A stretch of DNA of 35,911 nt from Elusimicrobiota bacterium (GTDB lineage Bacteria; Elusimicrobiota; Elusimicrobia; Elusimicrobiales; Elusimicrobiaceae): the NCBI GenBank assembly GCA_031262415.1, contig JAISHT010000058.1:1-35911 (forward strand), in the 5' to 3' direction. Positions within the stretch are counted from its first letter, which is position 1; every line of letters begins with the position of its first letter. The position numbers and the translations under genes are program-made. Shown one piece after another: positions 16,044 through 33,022 of the stretch. A model generated the notes under the pieces. That model was not told the DNA's origin. It was given only the letters and a program-made list of their open reading frames with translations, and searched no databases.

Positions 16044-16913
16044 ATGATATTGGAAGGCAAAACCCTATCAACGCAAATTCGCAGCACTCTAAAAAGTAGA
16101 ATTGAGGCTTGCCAGCAAAAACTGGGCCGTCCGCTAAAACTAGTCGGCGTGGCGTGGCAAGGCGGCTATGCGTCTTATTTATACCTTAAAAAAGAAGTTG
16201 AAGCCGCCGCAAAGCTGGGAGTGCAAGGCCAAGTTGTTGATATAGAACAAAACACCACTTTAGAAGATTTTGTCAATTTAATTAAAAAACTTTCCGCAGA
16301 CGATAATATTGATGCAATTTTAATACCCAAACCTTTGCCTAAACACCTAGATACGCCCGCCGCTTGGGAGGCTCTAGACCCCGCTAAAGATATTGACGGC
16401 GCAGCCGTTTTAAATATTGGCAGGCTCTTTTTATGCAAAACCGCTAGCGAAATTGAAAATATGCAAGACTTTGCGCCGTGCACGGCTAAAGCGGTTTTAA
16501 AATTGCTAGAGTATCATAAAATCCCGCTAAGTGGCGTTGAAACCGCTGTTATTGGCAGAAGCGGCACCGTCGGCAAGCCCGCAGCCCATATGCTTACTTG
16601 CCAAAATGCAACGGTAAAAATTTGCCACTCCAAAACAAAAGATATAAAGGCCTCGCTCTCTTCTTGCGATATTGTGATATGCGCCATAGGCTCGCCAAGG
16701 TTTTTAAAAGCCGATATGATAAAAGAAGGCGCAGTGGTGGTTGATGTCGGCACTAATGAGGACGAAAACGGCTGCTATTGCGGCGATGTTGATTATGAGG
16801 CAGTTTCAAAAAAAGCTTCAGCCATAAGCCCCGTGCCCGGCGGCGTCGGCCCGCTCACCCTAACATTTTTGCTGGAAAATATTGTTATAGCTGCTGAAAG
16901 GAAGATAAAATGA
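16044..16913 (+). CDS. folD: FolD-like methylene-THF dehydrogenase with substituted cyclohydrolase residues
   Basis: A 289-residue member of the FolD family, which oxidises 5,10-methylene-THF with NADP and hydrolyses the product to 10-formyl-THF, the one-carbon donor for PurN and PurH. The Rossmann part is normal: VIGRSGTVGKP (169-179), AIGSPRFLKADMIKEGAVVVDVG and SPVPGGVGPLT. In the catalytic part Tyr47 and Asp118 are kept, but an ungapped alignment with E. coli FolD puts Glu51 at the catalytic Lys54 and Pro95 at Gln98 (ILIPKPLPKHLD); FHP after KDVDG is AAV and PCTP is PCTA. It may be a dehydrogenase only, or have a changed activity. It is first in the long pur-pyr operon and overlaps purC by four bases. 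Confidence 0.82.
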   Translation: MILEGKTLSTQIRSTLKSRIEACQQKLGRPLKLVGVAWQGGYASYLYLKKEVEAAAKLGVQGQVVDIEQNTTLEDFVNLIKKLSADDNIDAILIPKPLPKHLDTPAAWEALDPAKDIDGAAVLNIGRLFLCKTASEIENMQDFAPCTAKAVLKLLEYHKIPLSGVETAVIGRSGTVGKPAAHMLTCQNATVKICHSKTKDIKASLSSCDIVICAIGSPRFLKADMIKEGAVVVDVGTNEDENGCYCGDVDYEAVSKKASAISPVPGGVGPLTLTFLLENIVIAAERKIK

Positions 16914-17791
16914 CCAAACAATTAAACCTGCCTTTACTTAGAAAGGGCAAAGTTCGCGAAGTTTATGACTTGCAAGACAAATTATTAATAGTTGCTTCTG
17001 ACAGAGTTTCCACATTTGACCATATCTTACCCACGCAAATACCGGGTAAAGGCAAAATATTAAGCAAAATAAGCAATTTTTGGTTTAAAACCACAAAAGG
17101 TATTGTTCAAAACCATCTTATTTCAGACAATATTGACGAAATTAATAAAGTTTTACCCGCTGATGTCCAGCTTGATAAAGAATATTACGGGGGCAGAACA
17201 GTTTTAGTTAAAAAAGCCCAGCGCATTGATTTTGAATGCGTCGTGCGTGGATATATTGCAGGCTCGGCTTGGGAAGAGTATAAAAAACAAGGCACTGTTT
17301 GCGGCCAAAAAATGCCGCAGGGTTTATTAAACGCCCAAAAACTTGAAAGCCCAATTTTTACCCCCGCCGCCAAAAATGACGAGGGCCACGATGAAAATGT
17401 CCCCTTCTCTTATATGGAAGAAAAACTTGGCGCAAAACTTGCCGCTGAAATTAAAGAAAAAAGCATTGCCCTCTATAACTTTGGGGAGCAATATTTAAAA
17501 GAGCGGGGCATAATACTAGCCGATACTAAATTTGAGTTTGGTTTAATAAACGGCGAACTTATTTTGATTGACGAGGTTTTGACGCCGGATTCTTCCCGCT
17601 TTTGGGACGCCGCCCATTATAAACCGGGCAGCAACCCCGCCAGCTTTGATAAGCAATTTATACGCGACTATATGGAGCAAACCGGTTGGGATAAAAACAG
17701 CGTTCCCCCGGCGATGAGCCAAGAAATTGTCAACGGCGCCGTAGCAAAATATAACGAGGCGTTAGAAAGAATTACCAAAGGCAGCCTATAA
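16910..17791 (+). CDS. purC: Phosphoribosylaminoimidazole-succinocarboxamide synthase
   Basis: The SAICAR synthetase of de novo purine synthesis (CAIR + Asp + ATP). The 293-residue protein has the length of the yeast/proteobacterial long form. It shows the ATP-site N-terminus GKVREVYD (13-20), ASDRVSTFD, the VVRGYIAGSAWEEY motif, PIFTPAAKNDEGHDEN, ILADTKFEFG and the signature LIDEVLTPDSSRFW; all appear intact. The start overlaps the folD stop (ATGA). The last codons and the stop form the 5' arm and loop of a hairpin with a T7 run, which may attenuate transcription into the following purS gene. The PurE product upstream in the pathway is also encoded in this operon. Confidence 0.96.
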   Translation: MTKQLNLPLLRKGKVREVYDLQDKLLIVASDRVSTFDHILPTQIPGKGKILSKISNFWFKTTKGIVQNHLISDNIDEINKVLPADVQLDKEYYGGRTVLVKKAQRIDFECVVRGYIAGSAWEEYKKQGTVCGQKMPQGLLNAQKLESPIFTPAAKNDEGHDENVPFSYMEEKLGAKLAAEIKEKSIALYNFGEQYLKERGIILADTKFEFGLINGELILIDEVLTPDSSRFWDAAHYKPGSNPASFDKQFIRDYMEQTGWDKNSVPPAMSQEIVNGAVAKYNEALERITKGSL

Positions 17792-17807
17792 ACGGCTGTC
17801 TTTTTTT
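17778..17807 (+). terminator. Possible intra-operon attenuator with the purC stop codon in its loop
   Basis: A 9-bp stem (17778-17786 with 17794-17802, one G-T wobble), loop TATAAAC containing the purC stop TAA, and a T7 run at 17801-17807. It has the form of an intrinsic terminator but sits between co-directional genes of one pathway. Confidence 0.6.
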
Positions 17808-17836
17808 AGCTTTAAACTTTTTGACAGGAGAAGAGA

Positions 17837-18292
17837 ATGGAAAGTTTTGTTGAAGTCTTTTACAAAAAAAATTACGGCGATAGAAAAATTATCCGCATAA
17901 AAAACCGCCTTGCTAGCGTGGGCCTTAAAAATATAAAAGAAATTATCCCAAGCACTATTTATAAAATCAGCGGGGATTATTCTGCGGCGCAAATTAAAAA
18001 AATTGCCCAAAATTTACTAACGGACCCTGTCCTTGAAACAAACCAAATAGGCCTAAGCAAGCCAAAAGATTTTTATAAAGTTGAAGTTTGGATAAGAGAT
18101 AGCTCTACAGATGTCGTCGGCGAAAGCGTAAAATACGCCGTTGCCGCTTTGGGCGAAAGTTTGCCGCTAGGCGTAAGGGTGGGCAATAGTTTTGCTATTA
18201 AAGGTTCTTTTACAAAACCGCAGCTAGAAGCGGCTGTTAAAAAAACATTTGTCAATGAAGTTGTAAATAAATTTACGATAGAGGGTTTTTAA
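17837..18292 (+). CDS. purS: Tandem-duplicated PurS (FGAM synthase small subunit)
   Basis: The accessory subunit of formylglycinamidine ribonucleotide synthase, which bridges PurL and PurQ and aids ammonia transfer. Usual PurS is about 80 residues; this is 151 and contains two copies. Copy 1 (about residues 3-72) begins FVEVFYKKN and ends LLTDPVLETNQIG. Copy 2 (about 80-151) begins YKVEVWIRDSSTDVVGESV, continues VRVGNSFAIKG and ends VNKFTIEGF, and is a clear PurS match. The arrangement equals the N-terminal module of fused PurSL proteins, here as a separate gene. CAGGAGA precedes the ATG; purL starts one base after the stop, so the two are translationally coupled. Confidence 0.85.
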   Translation: MESFVEVFYKKNYGDRKIIRIKNRLASVGLKNIKEIIPSTIYKISGDYSAAQIKKIAQNLLTDPVLETNQIGLSKPKDFYKVEVWIRDSSTDVVGESVKYAVAALGESLPLGVRVGNSFAIKGSFTKPQLEAAVKKTFVNEVVNKFTIEGF

Positions 18293-18293
18293 T

Positions 18294-20684
18294 ATGGAAA
18301 GAAAGCTTAAAGATTTTACTTCTTTATCCGCCTCGGCTTTATGCGCTTTGCAGGGCAATTGCGGTTGGAGTTTGTGCGAAGCCGAAATGTTAGCGGCGCA
18401 AAAATATTTTAAAACTATTGGCCGCGCGCCGACGCAGGCTGAAATGGAAACAGTAGCGCAAACTTGGTCTGAGCATTGCAAACATAAAACTTTTAACGAC
18501 CCTATTTCCTTTCAAAACGGCAATAAAAAAGAACTTATTAAAGAGGGCCTTTTTAAAAGCACGGTTTATAAAGCTACAAAAAAATTAAATAAGAAATGGT
18601 GCCTTTCCGTCTTCAAAGATAATGCCGGCGTAATTGAATTTGGCAAAGATAAAAAATGGGCGCTAGCCTTTAAGGCGGAAACGCACAATCACCCTTGCGC
18701 AGTTGAGCCTTACGGCGGGGCGGAAACTGGCGTCGGTGGCGTTGTGCGCGATATTTTAGGCGTTGGCCTTGGCGCAAAACCCGTTGTAAATACAGATATT
18801 TTTTGCTTTGCGCCGCCAAATTATTCCAAAAAATTACCGCCTGCCGCTTTGCACCCAAAACGCATTATCAACGGCGTTATTGACGGCGTGCGTGATTATG
18901 GCAACCGCCTAGGCATTCCAACGGCGGCCGGCGCAGTTTGGTACGATGATGACTTTGCTCTTAATCCTTTAGTATTTGTCGGCACTATTGGCATAATGCC
19001 AACTTGGGCCGTGCATAAAAAAGTTTATCCGGGCGATTTAGTCGTGGCTATCGGCGGCAGAACTGGGCGGGACGGGCTGCACGGCGCAACATTTTCTAGC
19101 GCAGTTATTGAAGACGCTAGCGAAGTATCCGCAGTGCAAATAGGCCACGCCATTAACGAAAAAAAGGTTTTAGACGCCATGATGAAATTGCAAGCCAAAA
19201 AACTTTATAGAGCCGTTACCGATTGCGGCGCAGGCGGGTTTTCCTCCGCCATTGGCGAGCTTGGCAGCGAGTGCGGCGTTAATATAGACCTTAAAAAAGC
19301 CATTTTGAAAGAGTCAAAAATACAGCCTTGGGAAATTTGGGTTTCGGAATCACAAGAGCGTATGATACTTTGCGTGCCGCCCAAAAACTTAAAAGCGGTT
19401 GAAAAAATCCTAAAAGCGGAAGATTGCGAATATGCCGTCTTAGGTAAATTTACCAAAACAAATAAACTTGAAGTTTATTTTGGCAAAGATAAAATTGTTG
19501 ATTTGGATAATTATTTCCTCCACGGCGGCGTGCCTAAAATTGTGCGCCGCGCCATTTGGCAAACGCCAAAACTTAAAGCCTCCAAACTTAATTTGCCCGC
19601 CAAAAAATACGGCGAACTTTTGCAAAAATGCTTAGCCAATTTAAACGCCTGTTCTAGAGAAGCCATTATCCGCCAATACGACCACGAAGTGCAAGGCGGC
19701 ACGGTGGTAAAGCCATTGCAAGGCATTAAACACGACGGCCCGGGCGACGCTTCCGTTATTTGGCCTGTAAGCGCAACGGGCAATCAAAAAGATTTCAACG
19801 GTTTTGCGGTTTCACACGGCATTAATCCGGAAATTGGCAAGAGCGACCCATATCAAATGGCTCTTAATTGCTGCGACGAGGCCGTGCGTAATTTGCTTTG
19901 CGTTGGGGCAGATATTAATAAAACCGCTTTCCTAGATAATTTCTGCTGGGGTAGCCCGGAAAACCCCAAACTTATGGGTGCGTTAGTTTTAACGGCCAAA
20001 GGCTGCTACGACGGGGCATTAGCTTACGGCGCGCCGTTTATATCGGGCAAAGATAGTTTTTACAATCAAAGTAAAGACGCCGCTGGCAAAGATTTGCCCG
20101 TGCCATCAACCATTTTAATTTCAGCAACTGCGCCTGTTTATGATGTGCGCCGCGCCATAACAATGGATTTAAAAGAAGCAGGCAATGACTTATATATTGT
20201 CGGCCTAACTAAGGACGAACTTGGCCGCTCAACCGCCGCCCAAATACTTGGCATAAAAGATACTTTTGTCCCGGTAGTTGACGCAAAATCAGCTTTAGCG
20301 GCATACAAAAAAATATACGGAGCAATGCAAAAAGGTTTAATTAAAACCGCTCACGATTTAAGCCAAGGCGGGCTTGCTGGCGCGCTAGCGGAAATGGCTT
20401 TTAGCGGCGGGCTTGGCGCAGAAATCAACTTAAACGCTTTGCCTTGCAAAGGCAAACTTTCAGACGGCCAAAAGCTGTTTAGCGAAAGCGCTAGCCGCAT
20501 AATACTTGAAGCCAGCCCAAAAGACGCGGCGGCAATTTCCAAAGCATTAAAAGGCAGCGTTTTTGTAAAAATAGGCAAAGTGTCTGAGGGCAAAAAACTT
20601 GTAGTAAAATACGGCAAAAAAGAAATAATTGCCCAGGATATTAACAAGCTTAAAAAAAGCTGGCAGAGCACAGCGGTTATGTAA
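18294..20684 (+). CDS. purL: Phosphoribosylformylglycinamidine synthase, large subunit
   Basis: The ATP-dependent catalytic subunit converting FGAR to FGAM with ammonia from PurQ. At 796 residues it is longer than B. subtilis PurL (about 740) and matches the PurL part of PurSL fusions. HCKHKTF is at 61-67, ETHNHP at 129-134, and the nucleotide-binding GGAETGVGGVVRD follows; the second half repeats the fold with GDASVIWPVS, DPYQMAL and DEAVRNLLCVGAD. The linker-helix type N-terminus (EAEMLAAQKYF, PTQAEMETVAQTWSEHCKHKTF) is typical of the group. It begins one base after purS. Nothing essential appears lost. Confidence 0.95.
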   Translation: MERKLKDFTSLSASALCALQGNCGWSLCEAEMLAAQKYFKTIGRAPTQAEMETVAQTWSEHCKHKTFNDPISFQNGNKKELIKEGLFKSTVYKATKKLNKKWCLSVFKDNAGVIEFGKDKKWALAFKAETHNHPCAVEPYGGAETGVGGVVRDILGVGLGAKPVVNTDIFCFAPPNYSKKLPPAALHPKRIINGVIDGVRDYGNRLGIPTAAGAVWYDDDFALNPLVFVGTIGIMPTWAVHKKVYPGDLVVAIGGRTGRDGLHGATFSSAVIEDASEVSAVQIGHAINEKKVLDAMMKLQAKKLYRAVTDCGAGGFSSAIGELGSECGVNIDLKKAILKESKIQPWEIWVSESQERMILCVPPKNLKAVEKILKAEDCEYAVLGKFTKTNKLEVYFGKDKIVDLDNYFLHGGVPKIVRRAIWQTPKLKASKLNLPAKKYGELLQKCLANLNACSREAIIRQYDHEVQGGTVVKPLQGIKHDGPGDASVIWPVSATGNQKDFNGFAVSHGINPEIGKSDPYQMALNCCDEAVRNLLCVGADINKTAFLDNFCWGSPENPKLMGALVLTAKGCYDGALAYGAPFISGKDSFYNQSKDAAGKDLPVPSTILISATAPVYDVRRAITMDLKEAGNDLYIVGLTKDELGRSTAAQILGIKDTFVPVVDAKSALAAYKKIYGAMQKGLIKTAHDLSQGGLAGALAEMAFSGGLGAEINLNALPCKGKLSDGQKLFSESASRIILEASPKDAAAISKALKGSVFVKIGKVSEGKKLVVKYGKKEIIAQDINKLKKSWQSTAVM

Positions 20685-20724
20685 AGTTGTTTTTACAAAC
20701 ATTAATAAAAATTTGGGAGTTTAT

Positions 20725-21477
20725 ATGAAAAAGAAAGCTAAAGCTTTAGTTGTTAGAACAGCGGGCATAAATTGCGATATTGAAACAAAACTTGCGCTAG
20801 AAAAAGCAGGCGCAGTAGCCGAGCTTATTCATACTAATGAAATAACTTCAGGCAAAACAAAAATATTAAATTATGATATTTTAATTTTCCCCGGCGGATT
20901 TTCTTACGGCGATGATATTGCCGGCGGTAAAATATGGTCTGTTCATATTGATAAGGTTTACGCAGATGTAAAAAAGTTTATTGATTCTGGCCGCCCGGTT
21001 ATGGGTATTTGCAATGGCTTTCAAGTTTTAACAAAACTTGGTTTCTTGCCAGAAAGTAAAGATAAAAAACAAACCGCAAGTTTAACTTTTAACGATAGCG
21101 GCGTCTTTATAGATAAATGGGTGGAGCTTAAAGTTAATAAAAACAGCCCGTGTATCTTTACTAAAAATCTTAACGACATTATAGAATTGCCCATAGCCCA
21201 CGGCGAAGGCAAAATAGTTATTGACGATAAAACAGTTTTAGAAGAGCTCAAAAAAAATAATTATATCCCGCTTACTTATGTAGATAATCCAAACGGCAGC
21301 GTGCTTGATATTGCCGGCGTTTGCAATAAACGGGGCAATTGTTTTGGCCTTATGCCTCACCCCGAGCGTTATGCAAGCCCGCTTCATCACCCGTCTTGGA
21401 CAAGGCCGCAAATGCAAAAAGTAAAAGCCGCAGGCCTAGAGTTCTTTAAAAATGCGGTAGAGTATTTAAAAGATTAA
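20725..21477 (+). CDS. purQ: Phosphoribosylformylglycinamidine synthase, glutaminase subunit
   Basis: A class I (triad) glutamine amidotransferase supplying ammonia to PurL. In the 250-residue form the catalytic triad is complete: Cys96 in MGICNGFQVL, and His212 and Glu214 in LMPHPERYASP. PGGFSYGDDIAGGKI (56-70) is the PurQ-specific motif. The start is set by GGGAG before the ATG at 20725; a 32-codon extension overlapping the end of purL is rejected. There is a 40-base gap after purL. An intact PurQ glutaminase contrasts with the damaged glutaminase of the PurF encoded next. Confidence 0.95.
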   Translation: MKKKAKALVVRTAGINCDIETKLALEKAGAVAELIHTNEITSGKTKILNYDILIFPGGFSYGDDIAGGKIWSVHIDKVYADVKKFIDSGRPVMGICNGFQVLTKLGFLPESKDKKQTASLTFNDSGVFIDKWVELKVNKNSPCIFTKNLNDIIELPIAHGEGKIVIDDKTVLEELKKNNYIPLTYVDNPNGSVLDIAGVCNKRGNCFGLMPHPERYASPLHHPSWTRPQMQKVKAAGLEFFKNAVEYLKD

Positions 21478-21489
21478 AAAATAATTTAC

Positions 21490-21516
21490 TTGTAATATAT
21501 AAACGGAGGATATGTG
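21490..21516 (+). promoter_or_regulatory. purF ribosome site and GTG start, with a repeated -10-like motif
   Basis: GGAGG at 21505-21509 lies four bases before GTG at 21514 and only two before ATG at 21512. The ATG frame meets a stop at its fifth codon (TAA), so GTG must be the start. TTGTAATATATA at 21490-21501 is identical to the folD -10 region, but no -35 hexamer is seen here. Confidence 0.5.
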
Positions 21517-22890
21517 GGCGGTATAATAGGCATACAAGGCAAAAAAAATGCGGCGGAGTTAACGCAAATTGGCTTGTTCTCGCTTCAACATCGTGGGCAA
21601 GAATCTTGCGGAATAGCGGCCTATGACGCAAAGGCAAAAATATTTAATGCGCATAAAAGCAGCGGTTTAGTTTCGCACGCTTTCCCGGCCGATATTTTAG
21701 CCCAGCTTCAAGGGCAAAGCGCTATTGGCCATGTTCGCTACCCAACCTCAGGCGCAAAGTTTGGATTGCAAGACGCTCAGCCATTTGTCTTTCGCTCGCT
21801 TCTTGGCGATATTGCCATTGCTTTAAGCGGCAATATTATTAATGTTGAGCCTCTGCTAGAAAAAATGCGCAAAAGGGGCGCAATACTTCAACACTCTTCA
21901 GAAACAGAGCTTATTATCCATCTAATTGCTCAAGAACGTAGCGGCTTTGAGCCCGCTATAAAAAAAGCTTTGCGGCAAATAGAAGGCGGCTTTAGCGCAG
22001 TTATGTTGTTTGGCGATAAATTAATAGCTTTCCGTGATCCAAACGGAATTCGTCCCCTAGTGCTTGGCAAAAAAGATAATACTTATATGGTTTCCTCCGA
22101 AACCGCCGCAATAGAAGTTATGGGCGGCAAGTATCTGCGTGATATTAAACCTGCCGAGCTGATAATAATTGAAGACGGCAAACTTAAAACAAGTTTTTAT
22201 ACAAAGCCCGCAAAAACGCATAATTGTATTTTTGAGCAGGTTTATCTCTCCCGTCCCGATTCTGTTATTCGTGGGCATTCTGTAGCAGATGCTCGTATGG
22301 AAATGGGCAAAAAGTTAGCCCGTCAAATGCAAGGCATAAAGGCTGATTTAGTTATGCCTGTGCCCGATTCTGGCATTTTTGCCGCCTTAGGTTTTGCAAA
22401 AGAATCAGGCTTACCTTTTGAAATGGGACTGGTTAGAAATCACTATATGGGCCGCTCTTTCTTAAAAAGCGTGCAAAATATGCGCGAGCAAGTTGTAAGG
22501 CTGAAACTTCTGCCAATTTTTGATATTGTGCGCGGCAAAGATATTATTTTAGTGGACGATTCCTTAGTGCGTGGCACAACGGCTAAACAGCTTATTAAAA
22601 TTTTAAAGGAACACGGCGCGCGTAAAGTGCATTTTGCCGTTACCAGCCCGCCAATTGTCGCCCCGTGCTTTTACGGTATAAATACGCCAAGCCAAAAAGA
22701 ACTTATTGCTTGCACTCACACCCATGAGCAAATTAAAGAAGAGCTTGGCGTTGAAACTATGACTTTTATTACGCAGGAAAATGCCGCAGTAGCTTGCGGC
22801 GCAAAAGAAGGGCCCGCTGGATATTGCAACTCTTGCTTTACGGGTAAATATATAAGTAAAATTTCAAAAGAAACTATGGATAAAAGATGA
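21514..22890 (+). CDS. purF: Amidophosphoribosyltransferase, 4Fe-4S type, glutaminase site lost
   Basis: PurF normally makes phosphoribosylamine from PRPP and glutamine. In this 458-residue protein the phosphoribosyltransferase half is intact: RPDSVIRGHSVADARMEMG, VPDSGIFAALG and the PRPP loop ILVDDSLVRGTT (345-356). Four cysteines match the B. subtilis-type Fe-S ligands: Cys238, Cys385, Cys438, Cys441. In the N-terminal glutaminase the position of nucleophile Cys1 is Gly2 (MGGIIGI for MCGIIGI), oxyanion Asn101 is Ser105 (ALSGNIIN for AHNGNLVN) and Asp127 is Glu130; Arg75 in HVRYPTSG is kept. It therefore should not hydrolyse glutamine by the known mechanism and probably uses free ammonia or a partner. 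GTG start; overlaps purD by four bases. Confidence 0.93.
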   Translation: MGGIIGIQGKKNAAELTQIGLFSLQHRGQESCGIAAYDAKAKIFNAHKSSGLVSHAFPADILAQLQGQSAIGHVRYPTSGAKFGLQDAQPFVFRSLLGDIAIALSGNIINVEPLLEKMRKRGAILQHSSETELIIHLIAQERSGFEPAIKKALRQIEGGFSAVMLFGDKLIAFRDPNGIRPLVLGKKDNTYMVSSETAAIEVMGGKYLRDIKPAELIIIEDGKLKTSFYTKPAKTHNCIFEQVYLSRPDSVIRGHSVADARMEMGKKLARQMQGIKADLVMPVPDSGIFAALGFAKESGLPFEMGLVRNHYMGRSFLKSVQNMREQVVRLKLLPIFDIVRGKDIILVDDSLVRGTTAKQLIKILKEHGARKVHFAVTSPPIVAPCFYGINTPSQKELIACTHTHEQIKEELGVETMTFITQENAAVACGAKEGPAGYCNSCFTGKYISKISKETMDKR

Positions 22891-24146
22891 AGATACTTGT
22901 TATAGGCACAGCAGGCAGAGAGCACGCTTTAGCGTGGAAATTAGCACAAAGCCCAAAGGCTACGCTAGTTTACACTTCTGTTATGGCGGCGGCCTCACTA
23001 GAGCAGGGCGGAAAAATAAAATTTAACCCTGCCGATATTAGCACAAACGATAAAGTTATTGCTTTTTGCCAAGCAGAGGCAATTGACCTTGTTGTAATAG
23101 GGCCCGAGGCTCCTCTTGCAGCGGGGCTAGCGGACGCTTTACGCCAAGTTGGCATAAAAGTTTTTGGCGCAGTTAAAGCGGGAGCAATGCTTGAGTCTTC
23201 AAAAGAATATTCCAAAAAATTTATGGATAAATATTTTATCCCAACAGCGGCCTATAAAAGTTTTACCGACGCAGACGAGGCTTTAAAATATATTGAAACT
23301 TTAACCCCGCCAATTGTAATTAAGGCCGATGGACTGGCCGCAGGCAAAGGCGTTAATATTTGCCTTAGCAAAGAAAATGCCGCAAAAACTATAAACGATT
23401 TTATGGTGGAAGGAGTGTTTGGCGGCAGCGGCAGTAAAGTTGTTGTGGAAGAATTCCTTGAAGGCCGTGAGGCCAGCATAATAGCTTTTATTGACGGCGA
23501 TACTTACAAAACTATGCCTGTTAGCCGCGACCATAAAAGACTGCTGGACGGCGACCTTGGCCCGAACACCGGCGGCATGGGCGTATACTCGCCCGTTTTG
23601 GATATAACAGAAGAAGATATTGATTTTATAAGAGAGCATGTTTTTGATAAAGCCATAAAAGGCCTTAAAGCCGAGGGCGTGGATTATTGCGGCATTTTAT
23701 ACGCCGGCATAATGAAAGGCCCCAAAGGCATTAATGTGCTTGAGTTTAATGCAAGATCCGGCGACCCTGAAACTCAGGCTATTTTACCGCTCTTAGAGCA
23801 GGATTTGCTTGAGCTTATTTTGGCTTGCGTAAATAAAAATCTAAAAGATTTTGCCCTGTCAGCTATTAATAAAACTTCTGTTTGCATTACTTTGGCGGGG
23901 CGAGATTACCCCGTTAGCGGCAGTAAGGGGCTAGAAATTACTGGTCTAGACAAAGTGCAAGACGTTTTAGTCTTCCACGCTGGAACCAAGTTAGAAAATG
24001 GTAAAACATATACAAACGGCGGCCGTGTTTTAAGCGTGGTTGCCTTGGGCGAAAACTTGGCCGATGCTCGCCAAAAAGCCTACGCAGAAATTGCAAAAAT
24101 TAATTTTGACGGTATGCAATATCGCCGTGATATAGGAGAAGAATAA
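22887..24146 (+). CDS. purD: Phosphoribosylamine-glycine ligase (GARS)
   Basis: The ATP-grasp ligase joining phosphoribosylamine (PRA) and glycine. The 419-residue length is normal. The ATP-grasp core is intact: PIVIKADGLAAGKGV, VEEFLEGREASI, SRDHKRLLDGDLGPNTGGMG and LEFNARSGDPETQ (the usual Phe before GDPE is Ser). The N-terminal PRA-site domain is divergent: GTAGREHA replaces the usual G(N/S)GGREHA, and VYTSVMAAASLE stands where VYVAPGNAGTAL is almost universal; GAVKAGAMLESSK replaces GPT-type sequence. It overlaps purF (ATGA), so the two enzymes that make and use unstable PRA are coupled. Still very probably PurD. Confidence 0.92.
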   Translation: MKILVIGTAGREHALAWKLAQSPKATLVYTSVMAAASLEQGGKIKFNPADISTNDKVIAFCQAEAIDLVVIGPEAPLAAGLADALRQVGIKVFGAVKAGAMLESSKEYSKKFMDKYFIPTAAYKSFTDADEALKYIETLTPPIVIKADGLAAGKGVNICLSKENAAKTINDFMVEGVFGGSGSKVVVEEFLEGREASIIAFIDGDTYKTMPVSRDHKRLLDGDLGPNTGGMGVYSPVLDITEEDIDFIREHVFDKAIKGLKAEGVDYCGILYAGIMKGPKGINVLEFNARSGDPETQAILPLLEQDLLELILACVNKNLKDFALSAINKTSVCITLAGRDYPVSGSKGLEITGLDKVQDVLVFHAGTKLENGKTYTNGGRVLSVVALGENLADARQKAYAEIAKINFDGMQYRRDIGEE

Positions 24147-24148
24147 AT

Positions 24149-24619
24149 ATGAAAAAAGCGCAAGTTTTAATTTTAATGGGCAGCGATAGCGATATGCCTA
24201 TTATGCAAAAAGCTCAGGAAGTTTTAAATGATTTTGGCGTAAACAGCGCAGTTAAAATTTGCTCGGCTCATCGCTCTCCAAATTTTTTGCATAAATTAAT
24301 GGAAGAATATAAAGACGCAGATGTTTTTATTGCCGGCGCAGGTATGGCGGCGCATTTGGCGGGCGTTGTACGTAGTTTAACAGTAAAGCCTGTTATAGGC
24401 GTGCCTTTAAACAGCGGCGCATTAAAAGGCGTTGACGCATTGCTAAGCACCGTTCAAATGCCTAGCGGTATGCCGGTAGCCACAGTTGCAATAGACGGCG
24501 CAAAAAACGCAGGCTTTTTAGCCTTGCAAATTTTAGCATTAAACGACGCAGCCCTTACGCAAAAACTTGCAGATTACAGGGTCAAGATGGAAAATGATGT
24601 TATAGGTAAAAACAAATAG
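24149..24619 (+). CDS. purE: N5-carboxyaminoimidazole ribonucleotide mutase
   Basis: PurE rearranges N5-CAIR to CAIR (class I) or carboxylates AIR directly (class II). The 156-residue protein has the phosphate-site motif GSDSD at 11-15 and the catalytic His41 in SAHRSP. The loop GAGMAAHLAG replaces the common GAGGAAHLPG, and GVPLNSGALKGVDALLSTVQMP is standard for class I. Class I requires PurK, which is not in this window. The gene begins two bases after purD. Confidence 0.93.
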   Translation: MKKAQVLILMGSDSDMPIMQKAQEVLNDFGVNSAVKICSAHRSPNFLHKLMEEYKDADVFIAGAGMAAHLAGVVRSLTVKPVIGVPLNSGALKGVDALLSTVQMPSGMPVATVAIDGAKNAGFLALQILALNDAALTQKLADYRVKMENDVIGKNK

Positions 24620-24631
24620 GAGCTATTTAAA

Positions 24632-25591
24632 ATGTCCACTTACAAAAAAGCAGGCGTAGATATAATTTTAGGCGATAAATTTGCAGATTTTATTGCAACA
24701 AAAGCAAAAGGTATAGGCGGATTTGCCGGCCTTTACCCATTGCCAATTAATAAAGAATACAGCCTTGTCGGCTCAACAGACGGCGTTGGCACAAAACTTA
24801 AACTTGCCTTTATTTTAAATAAGCACGATACTATTGGCATAGATTTGGTGGCTATGTGCGTTAATGATTTGGTTGTTTGCGGAGCAACGCCGCTTTTCTT
24901 TTTAGATTACTATGCAACTGGTAAATTAGATTTAGCGACATCTAAAAAAATTATCAGCGGTATTTTGGACGGTTGCAAACAAGCAAATTGCGCCTTAATC
25001 GGCGGGGAAACGGCCGAAATGCCCGGTTTTTATCAAAAAGGCGAATATGATTTGGCGGGCTTTTCCGTAGGCATAGTAAAAAATAGCGAGCTTATTGACG
25101 GACGCAAAATTAAAGCGGGCGATGTTTTGCTTGCGCTGCCTTCAAGCGGATTTCATAGTAATGGGTTTTCTTTGGTGCGTAATGTTTTTGCAAAAGAATT
25201 AAAAAAATACGCTAAACAACTAATCACGCCTACTAGAATTTATGTTAAAGATATTTTAAAACTTAAAGCCGGCCTTGCTAAAACTAAAAAAGAAATTTTA
25301 GGTATGGCTCATATCACGGGTTCGGGTTTGCCGGGCAATGTCCCACGCTTTTTACCCAAAAATGTTGCCGCTGTTTTAGATACTAAAACTTGGCAAGCGC
25401 CCTCTATAATTAAAACTTTACAGAAAAAGGGTAAAGTATCTGATAAAGATATGTATGATACTTTCAATATGGGCCTTGGTATGGTTATTTGCGTTAAAAA
25501 AGACGCTGTTGCTAGCGCAAAGAAAATTTTGCCTGAATTAATAGAAGTTGGTTATATAACAAAAGGTAAACAGGAAGTTATTTTAAAATAA
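24632..25591 (+). CDS. purM: Phosphoribosylformylglycinamidine cyclo-ligase
   Basis: AIR synthetase, closing the imidazole ring from FGAM with ATP. The 319-residue protein shows YKKAGVDI at the N-terminus, GSTDGVGTK (47-55), MCVNDLVVCGATPLFFLDYYATG, GGETAEMPGFY and the C-terminal HITGSGLPGNVPRFLP and DMYDTFNMGLGM motifs, all typical. It is slightly shorter than the usual 340-350 residues. AGGAG precedes the ATG; purE ends 12 bases upstream. Confidence 0.95.
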   Translation: MSTYKKAGVDIILGDKFADFIATKAKGIGGFAGLYPLPINKEYSLVGSTDGVGTKLKLAFILNKHDTIGIDLVAMCVNDLVVCGATPLFFLDYYATGKLDLATSKKIISGILDGCKQANCALIGGETAEMPGFYQKGEYDLAGFSVGIVKNSELIDGRKIKAGDVLLALPSSGFHSNGFSLVRNVFAKELKKYAKQLITPTRIYVKDILKLKAGLAKTKKEILGMAHITGSGLPGNVPRFLPKNVAAVLDTKTWQAPSIIKTLQKKGKVSDKDMYDTFNMGLGMVICVKKDAVASAKKILPELIEVGYITKGKQEVILK

Positions 25592-25612
25592 ACATTTTAA
25601 AATAAAGATAAA

Positions 25613-26158
25613 ATGAAAAAAATAATAGTTTTCGCCTCAGGCAGCGGGAGCAACTTTCAAGCGCTAGCGGAGGCTTGCCAAAATAGTAAAAAAGAGAGCA
25701 TTGTTTTACTTGTAGCCTCAAAAAAAGGAATAGGGGCTATAGAAAAAGCAAAAAACTTTAATATACCTGTTTTCATTGAGGCTAGCGGCGATTTAACCGA
25801 AGAGCTTAAAAAATTTAAGCCAGATTTAATTTGCCTAGCCGGCTATTTAAAAAAGATACCGCCAAGCATTTTAGCTCTTTGTCCTATTATGAATATACAC
25901 CCCGCCCTGCTGCCAAAATACGGCGGCAAAGGTATGCACGGGATATATGTGCACGAGGCGGTTTTAAAAAGTGGAGATAAAATAAGCGGCGCAACGGTTC
26001 ATTTTATAGATGAAGAATATGATAAAGGCAAAATAATTTTGCAAAAAAGCGCGCCTGTTTTGGCGGGCGATACGCCGCAAACTTTGGCTAAACGGGTATT
26101 AGAGGTGGAGCATCAAATTTACCCAGCCGCCGTTAAAGAATTTTTTGAAAATAATTAA
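25613..26158 (+). CDS. purN: Phosphoribosylglycinamide formyltransferase
   Basis: The 10-formyl-THF-dependent GAR transformylase, 181 residues. The catalytic residues are present: Asn94 and His96 in MNIHPALLPKYGGKGMHG and Asp133 in FIDEEYDKG. The phosphate loop ASGSGSNFQAL is at 8-18. It needs 10-formyl-THF, which makes the changed FolD at the head of this operon notable. It starts 21 bases after purM without an obvious Shine-Dalgarno site, so translation may depend on coupling. Confidence 0.95.
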   Translation: MKKIIVFASGSGSNFQALAEACQNSKKESIVLLVASKKGIGAIEKAKNFNIPVFIEASGDLTEELKKFKPDLICLAGYLKKIPPSILALCPIMNIHPALLPKYGGKGMHGIYVHEAVLKSGDKISGATVHFIDEEYDKGKIILQKSAPVLAGDTPQTLAKRVLEVEHQIYPAAVKEFFENN

Positions 26159-26189
26159 ATTTTGAAAAATAATTAAAAGAGGTTTTTAA

Positions 26190-27731
26190 ATGCAAACAAG
26201 TATTAAAAGGGCTTTAATTTCAGTATCAGATAAAACGGGCCTAGGCGATTTCGCTAAAGGTTTGCGCGAGCTTGGCGTTGAGCTAATTTCAACTAGCGGC
26301 ACCGCTAAATTTTTAAAAGAGGCGGGCTTGCCTGTTAGGGATTTAAGCAGTCTTACTAATTTCCCCGAAATTTTAGAAGGCAGGGTAAAAACTTTGCACC
26401 CAAAAGTCCACGGCGGTATTTTGTTTAAACGGGACGATAAAGAGCATACTAAAACTGTAGAGGAGCTTGGCATAGAGCCAATTGATATGGTTGTTGTCAA
26501 TTTGTATCCATTTAGGGAAACCGCCGCCAAAGCTAAAGAAAGTTTTGCCCCAGAAGTTATTGAAAATATTGATATTGGCGGCCCTTCTATGGTGCGTAGC
26601 GCGGCAAAAAACTTTAAAGATGTCGCTATAATTTGCCGCCCGCAGGATTATGAGGCTGTTTTAAAAGAACTTAAAGAAACAAAAAATCTTTCTTATCAAA
26701 CACGGCAAAAACTTTGCGTTGAAGCATTCTCTCACACCGCTTCTTACGACGCTGCAATAGCAACCGAGTTCCAAAAGGGCCTAGGCATAAAATATCCCGA
26801 AACAAAAATTATTGCGCTTGAAAAATTGCAATCTCTTCGCTACGGCGAAAATCCGCATCAAGCCGCCGCTCTCTATACCCAAAGCCACGGTTTTGCCTTT
26901 GAACAGCTTCACGGTAAAGAACTATCTTACAACAATATTTTAGACGCTTTTGGCACTTGGGATAATGTTAATGAATTTGAAGTTCCAGCTTGCGTTATTT
27001 TTAAACATATTACGCCTTGCGGCATTGGCACGGGAGCGGATATAAAAGAAGCTTTTGAAAATGCCTGGCGTAGCGATCCTAAATCCGCCTACGGCGGCAT
27101 AATTGCCTTTAACAGGCCGCTAAATGGCGAGACGGCGGAGCTTATAAAATCGTTTTTTGTAGAAGCAATTTGCGCCCCGGATTTTGACGAGCAGGCGCTT
27201 GAAATTTTGCAAAAAAAGAAAAATCTGCGTCTATTAAAACGCAAAACCCCTATAAGCAGCCGCCCGCTCTTAAAATCAATAGGCGACGAGGTTTTGCTTC
27301 AAGACCCTAATCAAATTTTATTTAAAGAAGCTTTAATCTGCCCAACAAAAAGGCAACCGACAAAAGAAGAAGAAACCGCCCTTAAATTTGCTTGGGCTTG
27401 CGTTAAACACATAAAATCAAACGCTATTGTTTTAACTTCAAAAAACGCTACTATAGGCATTGGCGCAGGGCAAATGAGCCGTGTTGACGCTGTTAAAATG
27501 GCGGGCATTAAATATAGCGAGTATCAAGAAACTAATGCAAAACCTAGCTTGTTAGTTTTAGCGTCCGATGCGTTCTTCCCATTTAGAGACGGCGTTGATC
27601 TTGCCGCCGAATTTGGCATTAGCGCAATTATAAACCCCGGCGGCTCTATACGGGACGAGGAAGTAATAAAAGCTTGCGACGAGCATAATATCGCTATGCT
27701 CTTTACAGGTATTAGGCATTTTAGGCATTAA
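26190..27731 (+). CDS. purH: Bifunctional AICAR formyltransferase / IMP cyclohydrolase
   Basis: The last two steps to IMP. The 513-residue protein has the N-terminal cyclohydrolase domain (SVSDKTGL, the RVKTLHPKVHGGIL motif, IDIGGPSMVRSAAKN) and the C-terminal formyltransferase domain (SLRYGENPHQAA, the Lys-His pair in VIFKHITPCG, KSNAIVLT, IGIGAGQMSRVDA, DAFFPFRDG and NPGGSIRDEEVI). All key blocks are present. The leader AGAGG precedes the ATG within a 17-base sequence that is repeated before pyrR. purN ends 31 bases upstream; pyrR follows after 11 bases, joining the purine and pyrimidine parts. Confidence 0.96.
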   Translation: MQTSIKRALISVSDKTGLGDFAKGLRELGVELISTSGTAKFLKEAGLPVRDLSSLTNFPEILEGRVKTLHPKVHGGILFKRDDKEHTKTVEELGIEPIDMVVVNLYPFRETAAKAKESFAPEVIENIDIGGPSMVRSAAKNFKDVAIICRPQDYEAVLKELKETKNLSYQTRQKLCVEAFSHTASYDAAIATEFQKGLGIKYPETKIIALEKLQSLRYGENPHQAAALYTQSHGFAFEQLHGKELSYNNILDAFGTWDNVNEFEVPACVIFKHITPCGIGTGADIKEAFENAWRSDPKSAYGGIIAFNRPLNGETAELIKSFFVEAICAPDFDEQALEILQKKKNLRLLKRKTPISSRPLLKSIGDEVLLQDPNQILFKEALICPTKRQPTKEEETALKFAWACVKHIKSNAIVLTSKNATIGIGAGQMSRVDAVKMAGIKYSEYQETNAKPSLLVLASDAFFPFRDGVDLAAEFGISAIINPGGSIRDEEVIKACDEHNIAMLFTGIRHFRH

Positions 27732-27742
27732 AAGAGGTTTTT

Positions 27743-28282
27743 ATGGAAAAAGTAATACAAACTGCCGACGCTATTGAAAAAACTCTTCAACGTATGGCGT
27801 ATGAAATTATGGAAAAGCACGAAAGCGTTGATAATATCGTTTTTGTGGGTATACGCACAAGGGGCGTTTATCTGGCAAAAAGGTTAAAAGAAAAATTTGA
27901 TAAAGCCGCCTCAAAAAATGCTCCTATTGGCGAGCTTGATATTACGCTTTACCGAGATGATTTAAGCCAAATAGCCGATGCGCCCGTAATCAAAGCTACC
28001 ACTATAAATTTTGATATTAACGGCAAAAATATAATACTTACAGACGATGTTTTGTATACGGGCAGGACAATACGCGCCGCATTAACGGAACTTGCCGATT
28101 TTGGCCGCCCAGCAAGTATAGAACTAGCAGTCTTAATAGACCGTGGACATAGAGAGCTTCCAATAAGCGCAAATTATATTGGCAAGTCAGTGCCGACATC
28201 TCGCAAAGAATTTATCCAAGTAAAACTAAAAGAAGAAGACAAAGAAGATATTGTGATACTAGGAGAGAGAAATGACCGATAA
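27743..28282 (+). CDS. pyrR: PyrR bifunctional regulator / uracil phosphoribosyltransferase
   Basis: PyrR binds UMP/PRPP and, in Gram-positive and some other bacteria, an RNA hairpin in pyr leaders to cause attenuation; it also has uracil phosphoribosyltransferase activity. The 179-residue protein carries the PRPP loop IILTDDVLYTGRTI (97-110), VGIRTRGVYLAKRL and LDITLYRDD, all PyrR-specific. It is the first pyr gene. I could not recognise a PyrR-binding hairpin before it: only 11 bases separate it from purH. A target elsewhere, for example at carAB, is possible. It overlaps pyrB by 11 bases. Confidence 0.94.
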   Translation: MEKVIQTADAIEKTLQRMAYEIMEKHESVDNIVFVGIRTRGVYLAKRLKEKFDKAASKNAPIGELDITLYRDDLSQIADAPVIKATTINFDINGKNIILTDDVLYTGRTIRAALTELADFGRPASIELAVLIDRGHRELPISANYIGKSVPTSRKEFIQVKLKEEDKEDIVILGERNDR

Positions 28283-29228
28283 ATTTATCTGGACCAAAAA
28301 AGACCTCTTAGGCATTGAATATTTATCCGCAGCGGAAATTGAGCATATTTTAGATACCGCCGCCTCGTTTAAAGAAGTTTCCACCCGCGATATTAAAAAA
28401 GTGCCCGCCCTAAGAGGCAAGACGGCGGCCAACCTTTTTTACGAGCCTTCCACCCGCACTAGAGTAAGTTTTGAAGTGGCCGAAAAGCGGCTTTCTTGCG
28501 ATGTTATTAATATGGATATGAAAGCAAGCAGCGTTTTAAAAGGCGAAACTTTGGCCGATACGGGTCGTAATCTTGAAGCCTTAAAAATTGATGTTTTTAT
28601 AATCCGCCACACTTACGCAGGCGCGGCAAATGTTTTAAGTAAATTTGTAAAAGGCAGCGTTATTAATGCCGGCGACGGCAAACACGAGCACCCAACCCAA
28701 GCCCTTTTGGATATGTATACTTTGCGGGAGAAATTTGGCAAAATCAAAGGCCTTAATGTGGCCATTATTGGCGATATTTCTCATTCCCGTGTGGCTCGCT
28801 CAAATATTTGGGGGCTTAGAAAACTTGGGGCAAATGTGGTGTTATGCGCGCCCGAAATTATCTTGCCAAAATACGCCCGTGAGTTTGGCGTAAAAGTTAC
28901 CAGCAATATAGACGAGGCTTTAAAAGACGCCCACGCCATTAATGTATTGCGTATGCAATTTGAAAGGGACGATATAAAATCTTTCCCAACGCCAAGCGAA
29001 TATTTTAAAAATTATGGCATTACAAAAGAAAGGCTTAAAAAATGCCGCCCGGATATTGTAGTTATGCACCCGGGCCCAATGAATAGGGGGCTTGAAATAA
29101 GCTCCGATGTCGCCGACGGTAAAAATTCCGTTATTTTAGAGCAAGTTACAAATGGCATTGCCGTTCGTATGGCAGTGCTTTTCTTAACAATCACCGCCAA
29201 AAGGGGGGAAAATGAAATACTTAATTAA
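28272..29228 (+). CDS. pyrB: Aspartate carbamoyltransferase catalytic chain
   Basis: Catalyses carbamoyl phosphate + Asp to carbamoyl aspartate, second step of UMP synthesis. In 318 residues the carbamoyl-phosphate loop STRTR is at 60-64, Lys90 lies in SSVLKGET, the motif IIRHTYAG follows, then GDGKHEHPTQALLDMYT (about 134-150) and the C-terminal HPGPMNRG. No regulatory chain (PyrI) gene is present, so it is expected to be the unregulated PyrR-associated type. The start lies 11 bases inside pyrR and the end 17 bases inside pyrC. Confidence 0.96.
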   Translation: MTDKFIWTKKDLLGIEYLSAAEIEHILDTAASFKEVSTRDIKKVPALRGKTAANLFYEPSTRTRVSFEVAEKRLSCDVINMDMKASSVLKGETLADTGRNLEALKIDVFIIRHTYAGAANVLSKFVKGSVINAGDGKHEHPTQALLDMYTLREKFGKIKGLNVAIIGDISHSRVARSNIWGLRKLGANVVLCAPEIILPKYAREFGVKVTSNIDEALKDAHAINVLRMQFERDDIKSFPTPSEYFKNYGITKERLKKCRPDIVVMHPGPMNRGLEISSDVADGKNSVILEQVTNGIAVRMAVLFLTITAKRGENEILN

Positions 29229-30507
29229 AAACGCCCGCATTATTGACCCGTCAAATAATTTTGATAAAGTAGCCGACTTGTTAATTGAAGACGGCAAAAT
29301 TGCCAAAATAGAGGCGGATATTAAAGCTAAAGACGCTAAAATTATTGACGCTAGCGGCCTAGTTTGCGCCCCCGGTTTTATTGACTTGCATACTCATCTT
29401 AGGGAACCCGGCTTTGAAGGTAAAGAAACAATTTTTTCCGGCACTCGTTCAGCCGCTAAAGGCGGATACACAACCGTTTGTATGATGCCAAATACTAACC
29501 CAACCGTTGACAATATTCAAACAGTTAAATTAGTAAAAGAAATAATAAAAAAAGACGCCTTAGTTAATGTGCAAATTGTTGCCGCCGCTACTCTTGCTAG
29601 AAAAGGCGAAACTTTAACCGATTATATTGCCTTAAAAAAAGAGGGCGTAGCCGCTTTGTCTGACGACGGCTCGCCAGTTGAAAATACTGAAGTTATGAGG
29701 CAAGTTTTAATTGAAGCCGCCCGTGCTGGTTTACCCGTTGCCTCTCACGCTGAGGATTTAAAACTCGCCAAAAACGGCGTTATGAACGATGGCTTTATCT
29801 CAAGCAAACTTGGCCTTAACGGTATTTCAAACGCCTCTGAATACAAAGCTATAGAGCGGGAAATTGCTGTAGCAAAAGAAACAAAAACGCCGCTTCACAT
29901 TTGCCATATTTCAACAAAAGAATCTTGCGAGTTAATTAAAAAAGCAAAAGCAGATGGTATTAAAATTACCGCCGAGGCTACGCCGCATCACTTTACCTTA
30001 ACGGAAAAAGAGTGCGAAGATTTTAGCGGCAATACAAAAATGAACCCGCCGCTACGCAGTCAAGGTGACGCGGAAGCCGTAAAGCAAGCTTTAAAAGATG
30101 GCACGCTTGACGCTATCGCCACAGACCACGCTCCGCACGCCCCGCACGAAAAGGAAGTAGAATTTGACCTTGCTCTATTTGGCATTATTGGGCTAGAAAC
30201 GGCTTTCCCCCTTGCCTATCAAACGCTGGTTGAAAGCGGGCTTATAACTTTAAATAAATTAATAGAGCTAATGTCTGTTAACCCTGCTAAAATTTTCAAA
30301 ATTCCCGGCGGCAATTTGGCGGTTGGGAGTAAAGCAGATATTGTCTTGCTTGATTTAAATAAAGAATGGATTTATAGTAAGGACGAAATTTTATCCTCCA
30401 GTCGCAATACGCCCTATATCGGGCGTAAAATGAAAGGCTCGCCCGCGCATACTTTTGTCAGTGGCCGCCATATTTTTAAAGAAGGGCAAATAAATGAAGA
30501 ATTTTAA
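29212..30507 (+). CDS. pyrC: Dihydroorotase (type I)
   Basis: Zinc enzyme cyclising carbamoyl aspartate to dihydroorotate. The 431-residue length and the DLHTHLREPGFEGKET motif (metal ligands His60 and His62) identify the long type I form that pairs with PyrB. The other metal or substrate residues are present: SDDGSPV, ASHAED, HICHIST and ATDHAPH. The N- and C-terminal composite beta domain is complete. The start overlaps pyrB by 17 bases; the end overlaps pyrK by 14. Confidence 0.96.
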   Translation: MKYLIKNARIIDPSNNFDKVADLLIEDGKIAKIEADIKAKDAKIIDASGLVCAPGFIDLHTHLREPGFEGKETIFSGTRSAAKGGYTTVCMMPNTNPTVDNIQTVKLVKEIIKKDALVNVQIVAAATLARKGETLTDYIALKKEGVAALSDDGSPVENTEVMRQVLIEAARAGLPVASHAEDLKLAKNGVMNDGFISSKLGLNGISNASEYKAIEREIAVAKETKTPLHICHISTKESCELIKKAKADGIKITAEATPHHFTLTEKECEDFSGNTKMNPPLRSQGDAEAVKQALKDGTLDAIATDHAPHAPHEKEVEFDLALFGIIGLETAFPLAYQTLVESGLITLNKLIELMSVNPAKIFKIPGGNLAVGSKADIVLLDLNKEWIYSKDEILSSSRNTPYIGRKMKGSPAHTFVSGRHIFKEGQINEEF

Positions 30508-31267
30508 AGCAAAAATAATTGAAAACAAACAGGTTGCGCCGCAAATTTACAACCTTAAATTTGAAGCCCCAAAACTTGCCGCCGAGGCTAAGCCCGGCCA
30601 GTTTGTAGAAGCGCTTTGCAAAGGCTCAGGCGCGCCGTTTTTGCGCCGCCCCTTTGGCGTGCATATGGCCGATACAAAAAGCGGTGTTTGCGAGATTTTG
30701 TTTCGCATAGCCGGCCGTGGAACGGAGCTTTTAAGCCAAATGTCAGCAGGCGATTTTTTGGATATAACAGGCCCGCTTGGCAATGATTTTGAAATTAATA
30801 AAGGCAAAAAACATTTTATTGCAGGCGGCGGTATGGGCATTGCCCCACTGCTTTTTTTAGCTAAAGCAATTTGGCAAACGGGCGAGCAGGCAAAAATATT
30901 TTTAGCCGCAAAAACTGCCGCTGATATTGCCCGCCTTGATATTTTTAAAAATTTTGGCGAAGTTATTTTATCAACGGAAGACGGCTCTCTTGGCGAAAAA
31001 TGTTTAATTGATACCCCGCTTGAGCGAGCTTTAAAAACAGAACAAAACGCCGCTTTATATGCCTGCGGCCCGCGCCCAATGCTACGCTGCGTAGCTGAGC
31101 TAGGGGCAAAATATCAAACGCCAACGCAAGTTTCGCTTGAAGAAAAAATGGCTTGCGGTATGGGCGTTTGCCAAGGTTGCCCAGTTGAGGTTAAAAATAA
31201 AGATACCAAGTATAAAATGGTTTGCAAAGACGGCCCCGTGTTTAATGCGGAGGATATTGTATGGTAA
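30494..31267 (+). CDS. pyrK: Dihydroorotate dehydrogenase electron-transfer subunit
   Basis: The FAD and 2Fe-2S subunit that lets class 1B PyrD use NAD. In 257 residues the FAD-binding motif RRPFGVH is at 51-57, the nucleotide loop GGGMGIAPLL at 111-120, and CGPRPML precedes the cluster. The 2Fe-2S ligands are Cys221, Cys226, Cys229 and Cys244. It overlaps pyrD by seven bases, as expected for the heterotetramer partner. The pair indicates NAD-linked, quinone-independent dihydroorotate oxidation, common in anaerobes and Gram-positive bacteria. Confidence 0.95.
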   Translation: MKNFKAKIIENKQVAPQIYNLKFEAPKLAAEAKPGQFVEALCKGSGAPFLRRPFGVHMADTKSGVCEILFRIAGRGTELLSQMSAGDFLDITGPLGNDFEINKGKKHFIAGGGMGIAPLLFLAKAIWQTGEQAKIFLAAKTAADIARLDIFKNFGEVILSTEDGSLGEKCLIDTPLERALKTEQNAALYACGPRPMLRCVAELGAKYQTPTQVSLEEKMACGMGVCQGCPVEVKNKDTKYKMVCKDGPVFNAEDIVW

Positions 31268-32873: not shown

Positions 32874-32916
32874 AATGAGTTGATATTTTAGCTGTTAGGC
32901 CGCTTTAAACAAAACA

Positions 32917-32949
32917 AAAACGCCCTGCTTAATATAAGCGGGGCGTTTT
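32917..32949. terminator. Bidirectional terminator, pur-pyr operon / pyrE
   Basis: A 15-bp stem (32917-32931 with 32935-32949, one G-T wobble), three-base loop, A-run and T-run. It matches the terminator at 4942-4975 except for one stem base and the loop. It ends the pur-pyr operon and probably pyrE on the other strand. Confidence 0.9.
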
Positions 32950-33022
32950 CTGCTAGATACAACAAAACTTCTTGTTTAAAAAGTTTTTGCTTAAAACTTT
33001 TACTTAAATTTTAGACTAATCT
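32950..33022. other. Spacer between terminator and pyrE end
   Basis: AT-rich bases with several related A/T tracts (AAGTTTTTGCTTAAAAC and neighbours). No coding or RNA signal is seen. Confidence 0.4.

What the first reader, a model, noticed from the sequence alone, without database searches (positions are those of the whole stretch)
21514..22890. PurF with an intact phosphoribosyltransferase but a dismantled glutaminase site
Read directly: the residue at the nucleophile Cys1 position is Gly (MGGIIGI), the oxyanion-hole Asn101 is Ser (ALSGNIIN in place of AHNGNLVN) and Asp127 is Glu (SSETELII), while Arg73 and the PRPP loop are retained and all four Fe-S cysteines are present. It is established that Cys1 is essential for glutamine hydrolysis and that PurF can use ammonia. 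Three separate changes argue against a sequencing error, although the Cys-to-Gly change alone could be one T-to-G substitution (TGC to GGC). Inference: an ammonia-dependent or partner-fed PurF in an ammonia-rich habitat.
Basis: partly seen in the sequence, partly recalled or inferred. Interest (0 to 1): 0.78.

Follow-up and report, generated by a model that had tools for sequence, protein, structure and literature searches.

The report
Bacterial PurF lacking its glutaminase site
In one family of insect-gut bacteria, the enzyme that starts purine synthesis has a duplicate, kept in the purine operon, that has lost every key residue for taking nitrogen from glutamine but keeps the rest of the enzyme, so it most likely uses free ammonia; similar cysteine-less copies were known only from some archaea.

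Summary
The 458-codon purF at 21514-22890 has Gly for Cys1, Leu-Ser for His100-Asn101 and Glu for Asp127, with Arg73, the PRPP loop and the Fe-S cysteines intact. It is not an assembly error: six genomes in two genera of one Elusimicrobiota family carry the same protein (64-70% identical to the window's) with identical replacements, and no other genome of the class does. Seven columns separate this clade from all canonical PurF compared; four are catalytic or glutamine-binding residues. The glutaminase domain is under purifying selection (dN/dS about 0.1) and is predicted to fold normally. The gene is one of a paralogue pair born within the family. The dead copy holds the ancestral purL-purQ-purF-purD slot; a canonical copy (MCG/AHNGN/SD) sits alone elsewhere in three genomes, with an in-frame TAA in this one, and was not found in three incomplete genomes. 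Best explanation: an ammonia-dependent PRPP aminotransferase, a bacterial, independently evolved counterpart of the crenarchaeal PurF' described in 2011. No assay exists. A mixed oligomer with canonical PurF, or a sensor role for the old pocket, is not excluded. A complete genome in the set is probably Elusimicrobium minutum, a cultured species, so it is testable.

The parts
21514..22890 (+). purF': glutaminase-dead PurF paralogue, GTG start, 458 aa
   Evidence: TIGR01134 434 bits
21517..21519 (+). GGC, Gly at the Cys1 nucleophile position (invariant in 6/6 clade members)
21736..21738 (+). Arg75 = E. coli Arg73, glutamine carboxylate ligand, retained
21772..21774 (+). Asp87 where the canonical sequences compared have Asn (clade-invariant replacement)
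21823..21828 (+). Leu-Ser replacing His100-Asn101 (oxyanion hole), clade-invariant
21901..21903 (+). Glu replacing Asp127, clade-invariant
22552..22581 (+). PRPP-binding loop VDDSLVRGTT, retained
22225..22227 (+). first Fe-S ligand cysteine (Cys238); the others are Cys385, 438, 441
18294..20684 (+). purL, operon neighbour
20629..21477 (+). purQ, class-I glutaminase with intact Cys (GICNGF): the step-4 glutaminase is not dismantled
22887..24146 (+). purD, start overlaps the purF' stop (ATGA): consumer of the product
16910..27731 (+). pur operon purC-S-L-Q-F'-D-E-M-N-H

Best explanation
The gene encodes an ammonia-dependent phosphoribosylpyrophosphate aminotransferase (PurF'). purF was duplicated in the Elusimicrobiaceae lineage. 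The copy that kept the operon slot lost the glutamine-hydrolysing residues but kept the fold, the interdomain residues Arg73/Tyr74, the PRPP loop and the Fe-S site. In a host gut with high ammonia, NH3 would reach the PRT site directly or through the old channel, react with PRPP to give phosphoribosylamine, and PurD, encoded by the overlapping next gene, would take up that labile product. The separate canonical, glutamine-using copy would serve as a low-ammonia back-up and is dispensable in some lineages. Shown by sequence: clade-wide fixation, paralogy, operon position, purifying selection, intact PRT motifs. Inferred: ammonia as substrate, the entry route, the back-up role.
For: Six of six clade members share Gly1, Leu-Ser and Glu127. 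The clade has 100/100 support and is sister to canonical Elusimicrobiaceae PurF (joint 100/98; 96/88). dN/dS of the glutaminase domain is 0.106-0.111, like canonical (0.115-0.123), so it is not decaying. PRPP loop, Arg73, Tyr74 (5/6) and four Fe-S Cys are kept. AlphaFold model pLDDT 88, pTM 0.87, TM 0.92 to B. subtilis PurF. Operon position is conserved. Cys1-replaced E. coli PurF retains ammonia activity (PMC3261824). No Amt transporter in 8/8 genomes, with 14/14 controls positive. Termite guts hold 69-900 umol ammonia per g dry weight (PMC4675541). No PurF-type glutaminase other than GlmS and canonical PurF.
Against: No biochemistry. Glutamine synthetase is present and PurQ and GlmS keep their Cys, so glutamine is still used for other steps. 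Canonical PurF coexists in three genomes. An invariant proline of the PRT flexible loop (E. coli Pro337) is lost in all six, and two members have RGTQ instead of RGTT, so PRT catalysis may also be altered. Strict conservation of the changed pocket (ALSGN, SSETE) is more than a merely unused pocket would need.
Confidence: 0.6

Rival explanations
1. Mixed oligomer: PurF' and canonical PurF co-assemble (PurF is a homotetramer elsewhere); the canonical subunit hydrolyses glutamine and the complex shares ammonia, or PurF' acts as regulatory or PRT subunit.
For: Both copies coexist in G000, G015 and G018 and descend from one duplication within the family; the fold is retained.
Against: Canonical is not found in G009, G023, G025 (83, 88, 66% complete) and in G000 it carries an in-frame TAA. 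The canonical copy keeps both active sites, so there is no complementary loss. The genes are not linked.
Confidence: 0.17
2. Regulatory pseudo-enzyme: the old glutamine pocket, with its new invariant residues, binds a ligand (glutamate, glutamine or another amino acid) without hydrolysis and tunes PRT activity or another pur enzyme.
For: The altered pocket is as strictly conserved as an active site, with Arg73 and Thr76 kept.
Against: The PRPP and Fe-S motifs are also conserved, as expected of a working PRT. In genomes with no canonical copy found, some PurF activity is needed for the otherwise complete pathway.
Confidence: 0.15
3. Decaying gene: the canonical copy does the work and purF' is on the way out.
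For: The family is losing purine synthesis: 82 of 90 genomes have no PurF match.
Against: dN/dS about 0.1 in both domains, no stops in 6/6, identical replacements across two genera, operon position kept. It is the canonical copy that carries the stop in this genome.
Confidence: 0.04
4. Sequencing or assembly error at the N-terminus.
For: One T-to-G change, or a 2-base difference at ATGTG(GG)CGGT, could hide a Cys in this MAG taken alone.
Against: Five other assemblies, one of them a complete genome, show the same residues, including three positions far from the start.
Confidence: 0.01

Closest known systems
Crenarchaeal PurF' (Brown et al. 2011, Biol Direct, PMC3261824)
   Same: Paralogue of PurF without the N-terminal Cys (Ala or Val in many), coexisting with a canonical PurF and located near purine genes; those authors suggested, without testing, an ammonia-dependent aminotransferase.
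   Different: Independent origin: the Elusimicrobiaceae copy is sister to Elusimicrobiaceae canonical PurF. Here Gly replaces Cys, and His100, Asn101 and Asp127 are also replaced; the dead copy alone holds the operon slot. Crenarchaeal sequences could not be fetched, so no direct alignment was made.
Methanocorpusculum labreanum Mlab_0150 (same paper)
   Same: Extra PurF copy with Ser at Cys1.
   Different: Single species, recent duplicate; judged by those authors probably not the working enzyme.
Canonical PurF / GPATase (B. subtilis 1ao0, E. coli 1ecb)
   Same: Fold, PRPP loop, Fe-S cysteines (B. subtilis type), Arg73; 41% identity and TM 0.92 to 1ao0.
   Different: No Cys1, Asn101 or Asp127; cannot be a glutamine-hydrolysing enzyme by the known mechanism.
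Carbamoyl phosphate synthetase 1 (ureotelic vertebrates; PMC4655335)
   Same: Works-like analogue: a glutamine amidotransferase whose glutaminase domain is kept but dead, running on ammonia, while other CPS types use glutamine.
   Different: Class-I glutaminase, unrelated reaction; needs N-acetylglutamate.

Membership tests
PurF family (amidophosphoribosyltransferase, TIGR01134) | full-length match above the curated cut-off, PurF fold | tested here: met
   434 vs 350 bits; TM 0.92 to 1ao0
PurF family (amidophosphoribosyltransferase, TIGR01134) | PRPP loop VDDS(I/L)VRGTT and four Fe-S cysteines | tested here: met
   (RGTQ in two clade members)
Glutamine-dependent PurF (EC 2.4.2.14) | N-terminal Cys nucleophile, Asn101 oxyanion hole, Asp127 | tested here: not met
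   Gly, Ser, Glu in 6/6
PurF' (Cys-less PurF paralogue) | paralogue of PurF lacking Cys1, with a canonical PurF in the genome | tested here: met
   G000, G015, G018 have both, though the G000 canonical copy has an in-frame TAA; canonical not found in three incomplete genomes
PurF' (Cys-less PurF paralogue) | located with purine genes | tested here: met
   purL-Q-F'-D order in window, G015, G018, G023, G025 (other genes intervene in some); the G009 contig shows no pur neighbour
PurF' (Cys-less PurF paralogue) | same clade as crenarchaeal PurF' | not tested
   no Thermoproteota sequence was reachable; nesting within Elusimicrobiota argues for separate origin
Ammonia-dependent aminotransferase | PRPP + NH3 to phosphoribosylamine without glutamine | not testable with these tools
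   needs an enzyme assay

The most novel reading that the evidence does not exclude
The glutaminase pocket was not just lost but rebuilt: the invariant Leu-Ser, Asp83, Glu127 and retained Arg73 form a new binding site (an amino-acid or nitrogen-status sensor, or an ammonia entry), making PurF' a nitrogen-sensing first enzyme of purine synthesis, possibly within a mixed oligomer with canonical PurF.
Probability: 0.2. Interest if true: 0.75.

Novelty: new variant of a known kind. Interest (0 to 1): 0.56.

Why it matters
Whether natural PurF-like enzymes run on ammonia was left open when crenarchaeal PurF' was described without an assay. This is a bacterial, independently evolved case under clear purifying selection, in the pur operon itself, with both copies in a complete genome that is probably a cultured species (Elusimicrobium minutum). 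It makes the question testable and would parallel, for purines, the change from glutamine-using to ammonia-using carbamoyl phosphate synthetase.

Tried and rejected
Assembly error: rejected. Alternative upstream start restoring a Cys: the six codons before the start read YINGGY after a stop, no Cys. Downstream Cys33 (HRGQESCGI) as substitute nucleophile: not conserved (Ser in G018) and present in some canonical proteins too. Free-standing glutaminase partner: only GlmS found, with intact Cys. Complementary loss in the canonical copy (canonical = glutaminase only): not seen, both its sites intact. An apparent PurF N-terminus in G020 was GlmS. Proving real absence of canonical PurF in G025, G023 and G009 by synteny with the G018 carB region: that site is not shared, so it shows only that no purF is there. 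Viral contigs: no match. Crenarchaeal sequences could not be fetched. The Herlemann 2009 and Geissinger 2009 papers are not held.

Full report
Observation. The ORF at 21514-22890 (+, GTG start, 458 aa) is PurF: TIGR01134 at 434 bits against a cut-off of 350, nearest solved structure B. subtilis 1ao0. In E. coli numbering the nucleophile Cys1 is Gly, His100-Asn101 is Leu-Ser and Asp127 is Glu. Arg73, Tyr74, the PRPP loop VDDSLVRGTT and the four Fe-S cysteines are kept.

Not an error. The window lies in a 1.23-Mb, 89%-complete MAG. Five further genomes of the same family encode the same protein at 64-70% identity. One of them, G018, is a single contig of 1,643,562 bp; from memory this matches Elusimicrobium minutum Pei191, which would make the family Elusimicrobiaceae. 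Public titles show the other four are Elusimicrobiota MAGs; Lab288 is the soil-feeding termite Labiotermes (PMC7024585), and the other sample codes look like termite samples by their naming (inference). All six have (M/V)GG(I/V)IG, ALSGN and SSETE. Against 24 canonical sequences only seven columns are fixed and different: C1G, F4I, N83D (absolute only in this sample; E. coli has Glu there), H100L, N101S, D127E and one helix position, L421A in B. subtilis numbering.

Distribution. In 235 genomes of the class, the next-best PurF after the six and their own canonical paralogues is 49-51% identical; the 18 order-level sequences read are all MCG/AHNGN. A scan of 85,462 species genomes with the altered region found the four public MAGs at 67-74% identity and then dropped to 48% or less, all those retaining Cys where readable. 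That scan used two peptide patterns, so PurF proteins that lost the site in other ways would be missed. Viral contigs had none.

Paralogy. The genome also holds a canonical PurF (MCGIFGI, AHNGN, SDSE) on contig C30, 53% identical, with one in-frame TAA where relatives read on, so it is either a recent pseudogene or an error. G015 and G018 also hold both copies; G012 shows a canonical fragment; G009, G023 and G025 show only the dead form, but they are 83, 88 and 66% complete. In trees the dead clade (100/100) is sister to the family's canonical clade (joint support 96/88, 100/98), inside Elusimicrobiota. So the duplication, or loss followed by regain from a near relative, happened in this lineage and not by transfer from archaea. 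The dead-copy tree follows the genera; the canonical tree does not (G000 groups with G018), which suggests transfer or differential loss of the canonical copy.

Operon. In sister families the slot purL-purQ-purF-purD holds canonical purF. In this family it holds the dead copy, and the canonical gene is solitary at three different places, next to carAB in G018.

Selection and structure. dN/dS in the glutaminase domain of the dead clade is 0.106-0.111, like canonical copies (0.115-0.123). An AlphaFold model (pLDDT 88, pTM 0.87) matches 1ao0 with TM 0.92. The pocket segment is strongly conserved within the clade. One caution: an invariant Pro of the PRT flexible loop is lost in all six, and two members have RGTQ in the PRPP loop.

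Mechanism. Cys1-replaced E. coli PurF cannot use glutamine but still uses ammonia (PMC3261824, citing Mei and Zalkin 1989). Tyr74 and Ile335 line the channel and Arg73 binds the glutamine carboxylate (PMC7953260); Arg73 is kept in all six, Tyr74 in five, and the 335 position stays aliphatic. Hence ammonia-dependent phosphoribosylamine synthesis is the most likely activity. Context: no Amt ammonium transporter in 8 of 8 genomes with 14 of 14 controls positive, although most free-living Endomicrobiaceae of the same phylum have AmtB (PMC11257099); glutamine synthetase in 7 of 8, so glutamine is still made; termite guts hold high ammonia (PMC4675541). PurQ and GlmS keep their cysteines, so the loss is specific to PurF among those checked. 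That specificity does not by itself explain why only this step was switched.

Known relatives. Brown et al. 2011 (PMC3261824) described crenarchaeal PurF', a Cys-less paralogue near purine genes, and suggested ammonia dependence. This finding is the same kind of thing, bacterial and separately evolved. CPS1 is the functional parallel (PMC4655335). I found no paper on the Elusimicrobia case in the held library, but the E. minutum genome papers are not held, so prior mention cannot be excluded.

Noticed in passing
window 17837-18292: PurS is 151 aa with two PurS-like halves (NCBIfam PurS match at residues 1-71, Pfam PurS at 81-149): a tandem-fused PurS, also about 150 aa in relatives.
   Followed up: partly
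L002 1389-1391 (G000:C30): In-frame TAA in the canonical purF of the same genome, in the PRT flexible loop; reading frame otherwise intact on both sides.
   Followed up: partly
L033 8505-9107; L035 1067-2143 and 6467-7123; L037 2608-3920; L039 7198-8607 and 12450-13574: Relatives have unrelated genes (secreted or lipoprotein-like, a trypsin-like protease, a possible GIY-YIG nuclease) inserted inside the pur operon, mostly between purL and purQ; the window operon has none.
   Followed up: no
family survey: 82 of 90 genomes of the family have no PurF match at 1e-30: purine synthesis is widely lost, and kept in a few members of which those identifiable are insect-gut.
   Followed up: partly
G150:C23:22201-23577 and G153:C101:105784-107160: Two order-level genomes carry a second, divergent PurF (41% identity); active-site residues not read.
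   Followed up: no
L117, L123, L124: Divergent PurF proteins with His100 replaced (SFNGN, TSNGD, ASNGD) but Cys1 and Asn101 kept.
   Followed up: no
window 27743-33598: The pur operon runs into a pyr cluster (pyrR identified by NCBIfam; pyrB, pyrC, pyrK, pyrD, pyrF and, on the other strand, pyrE by reading only).
   Followed up: no
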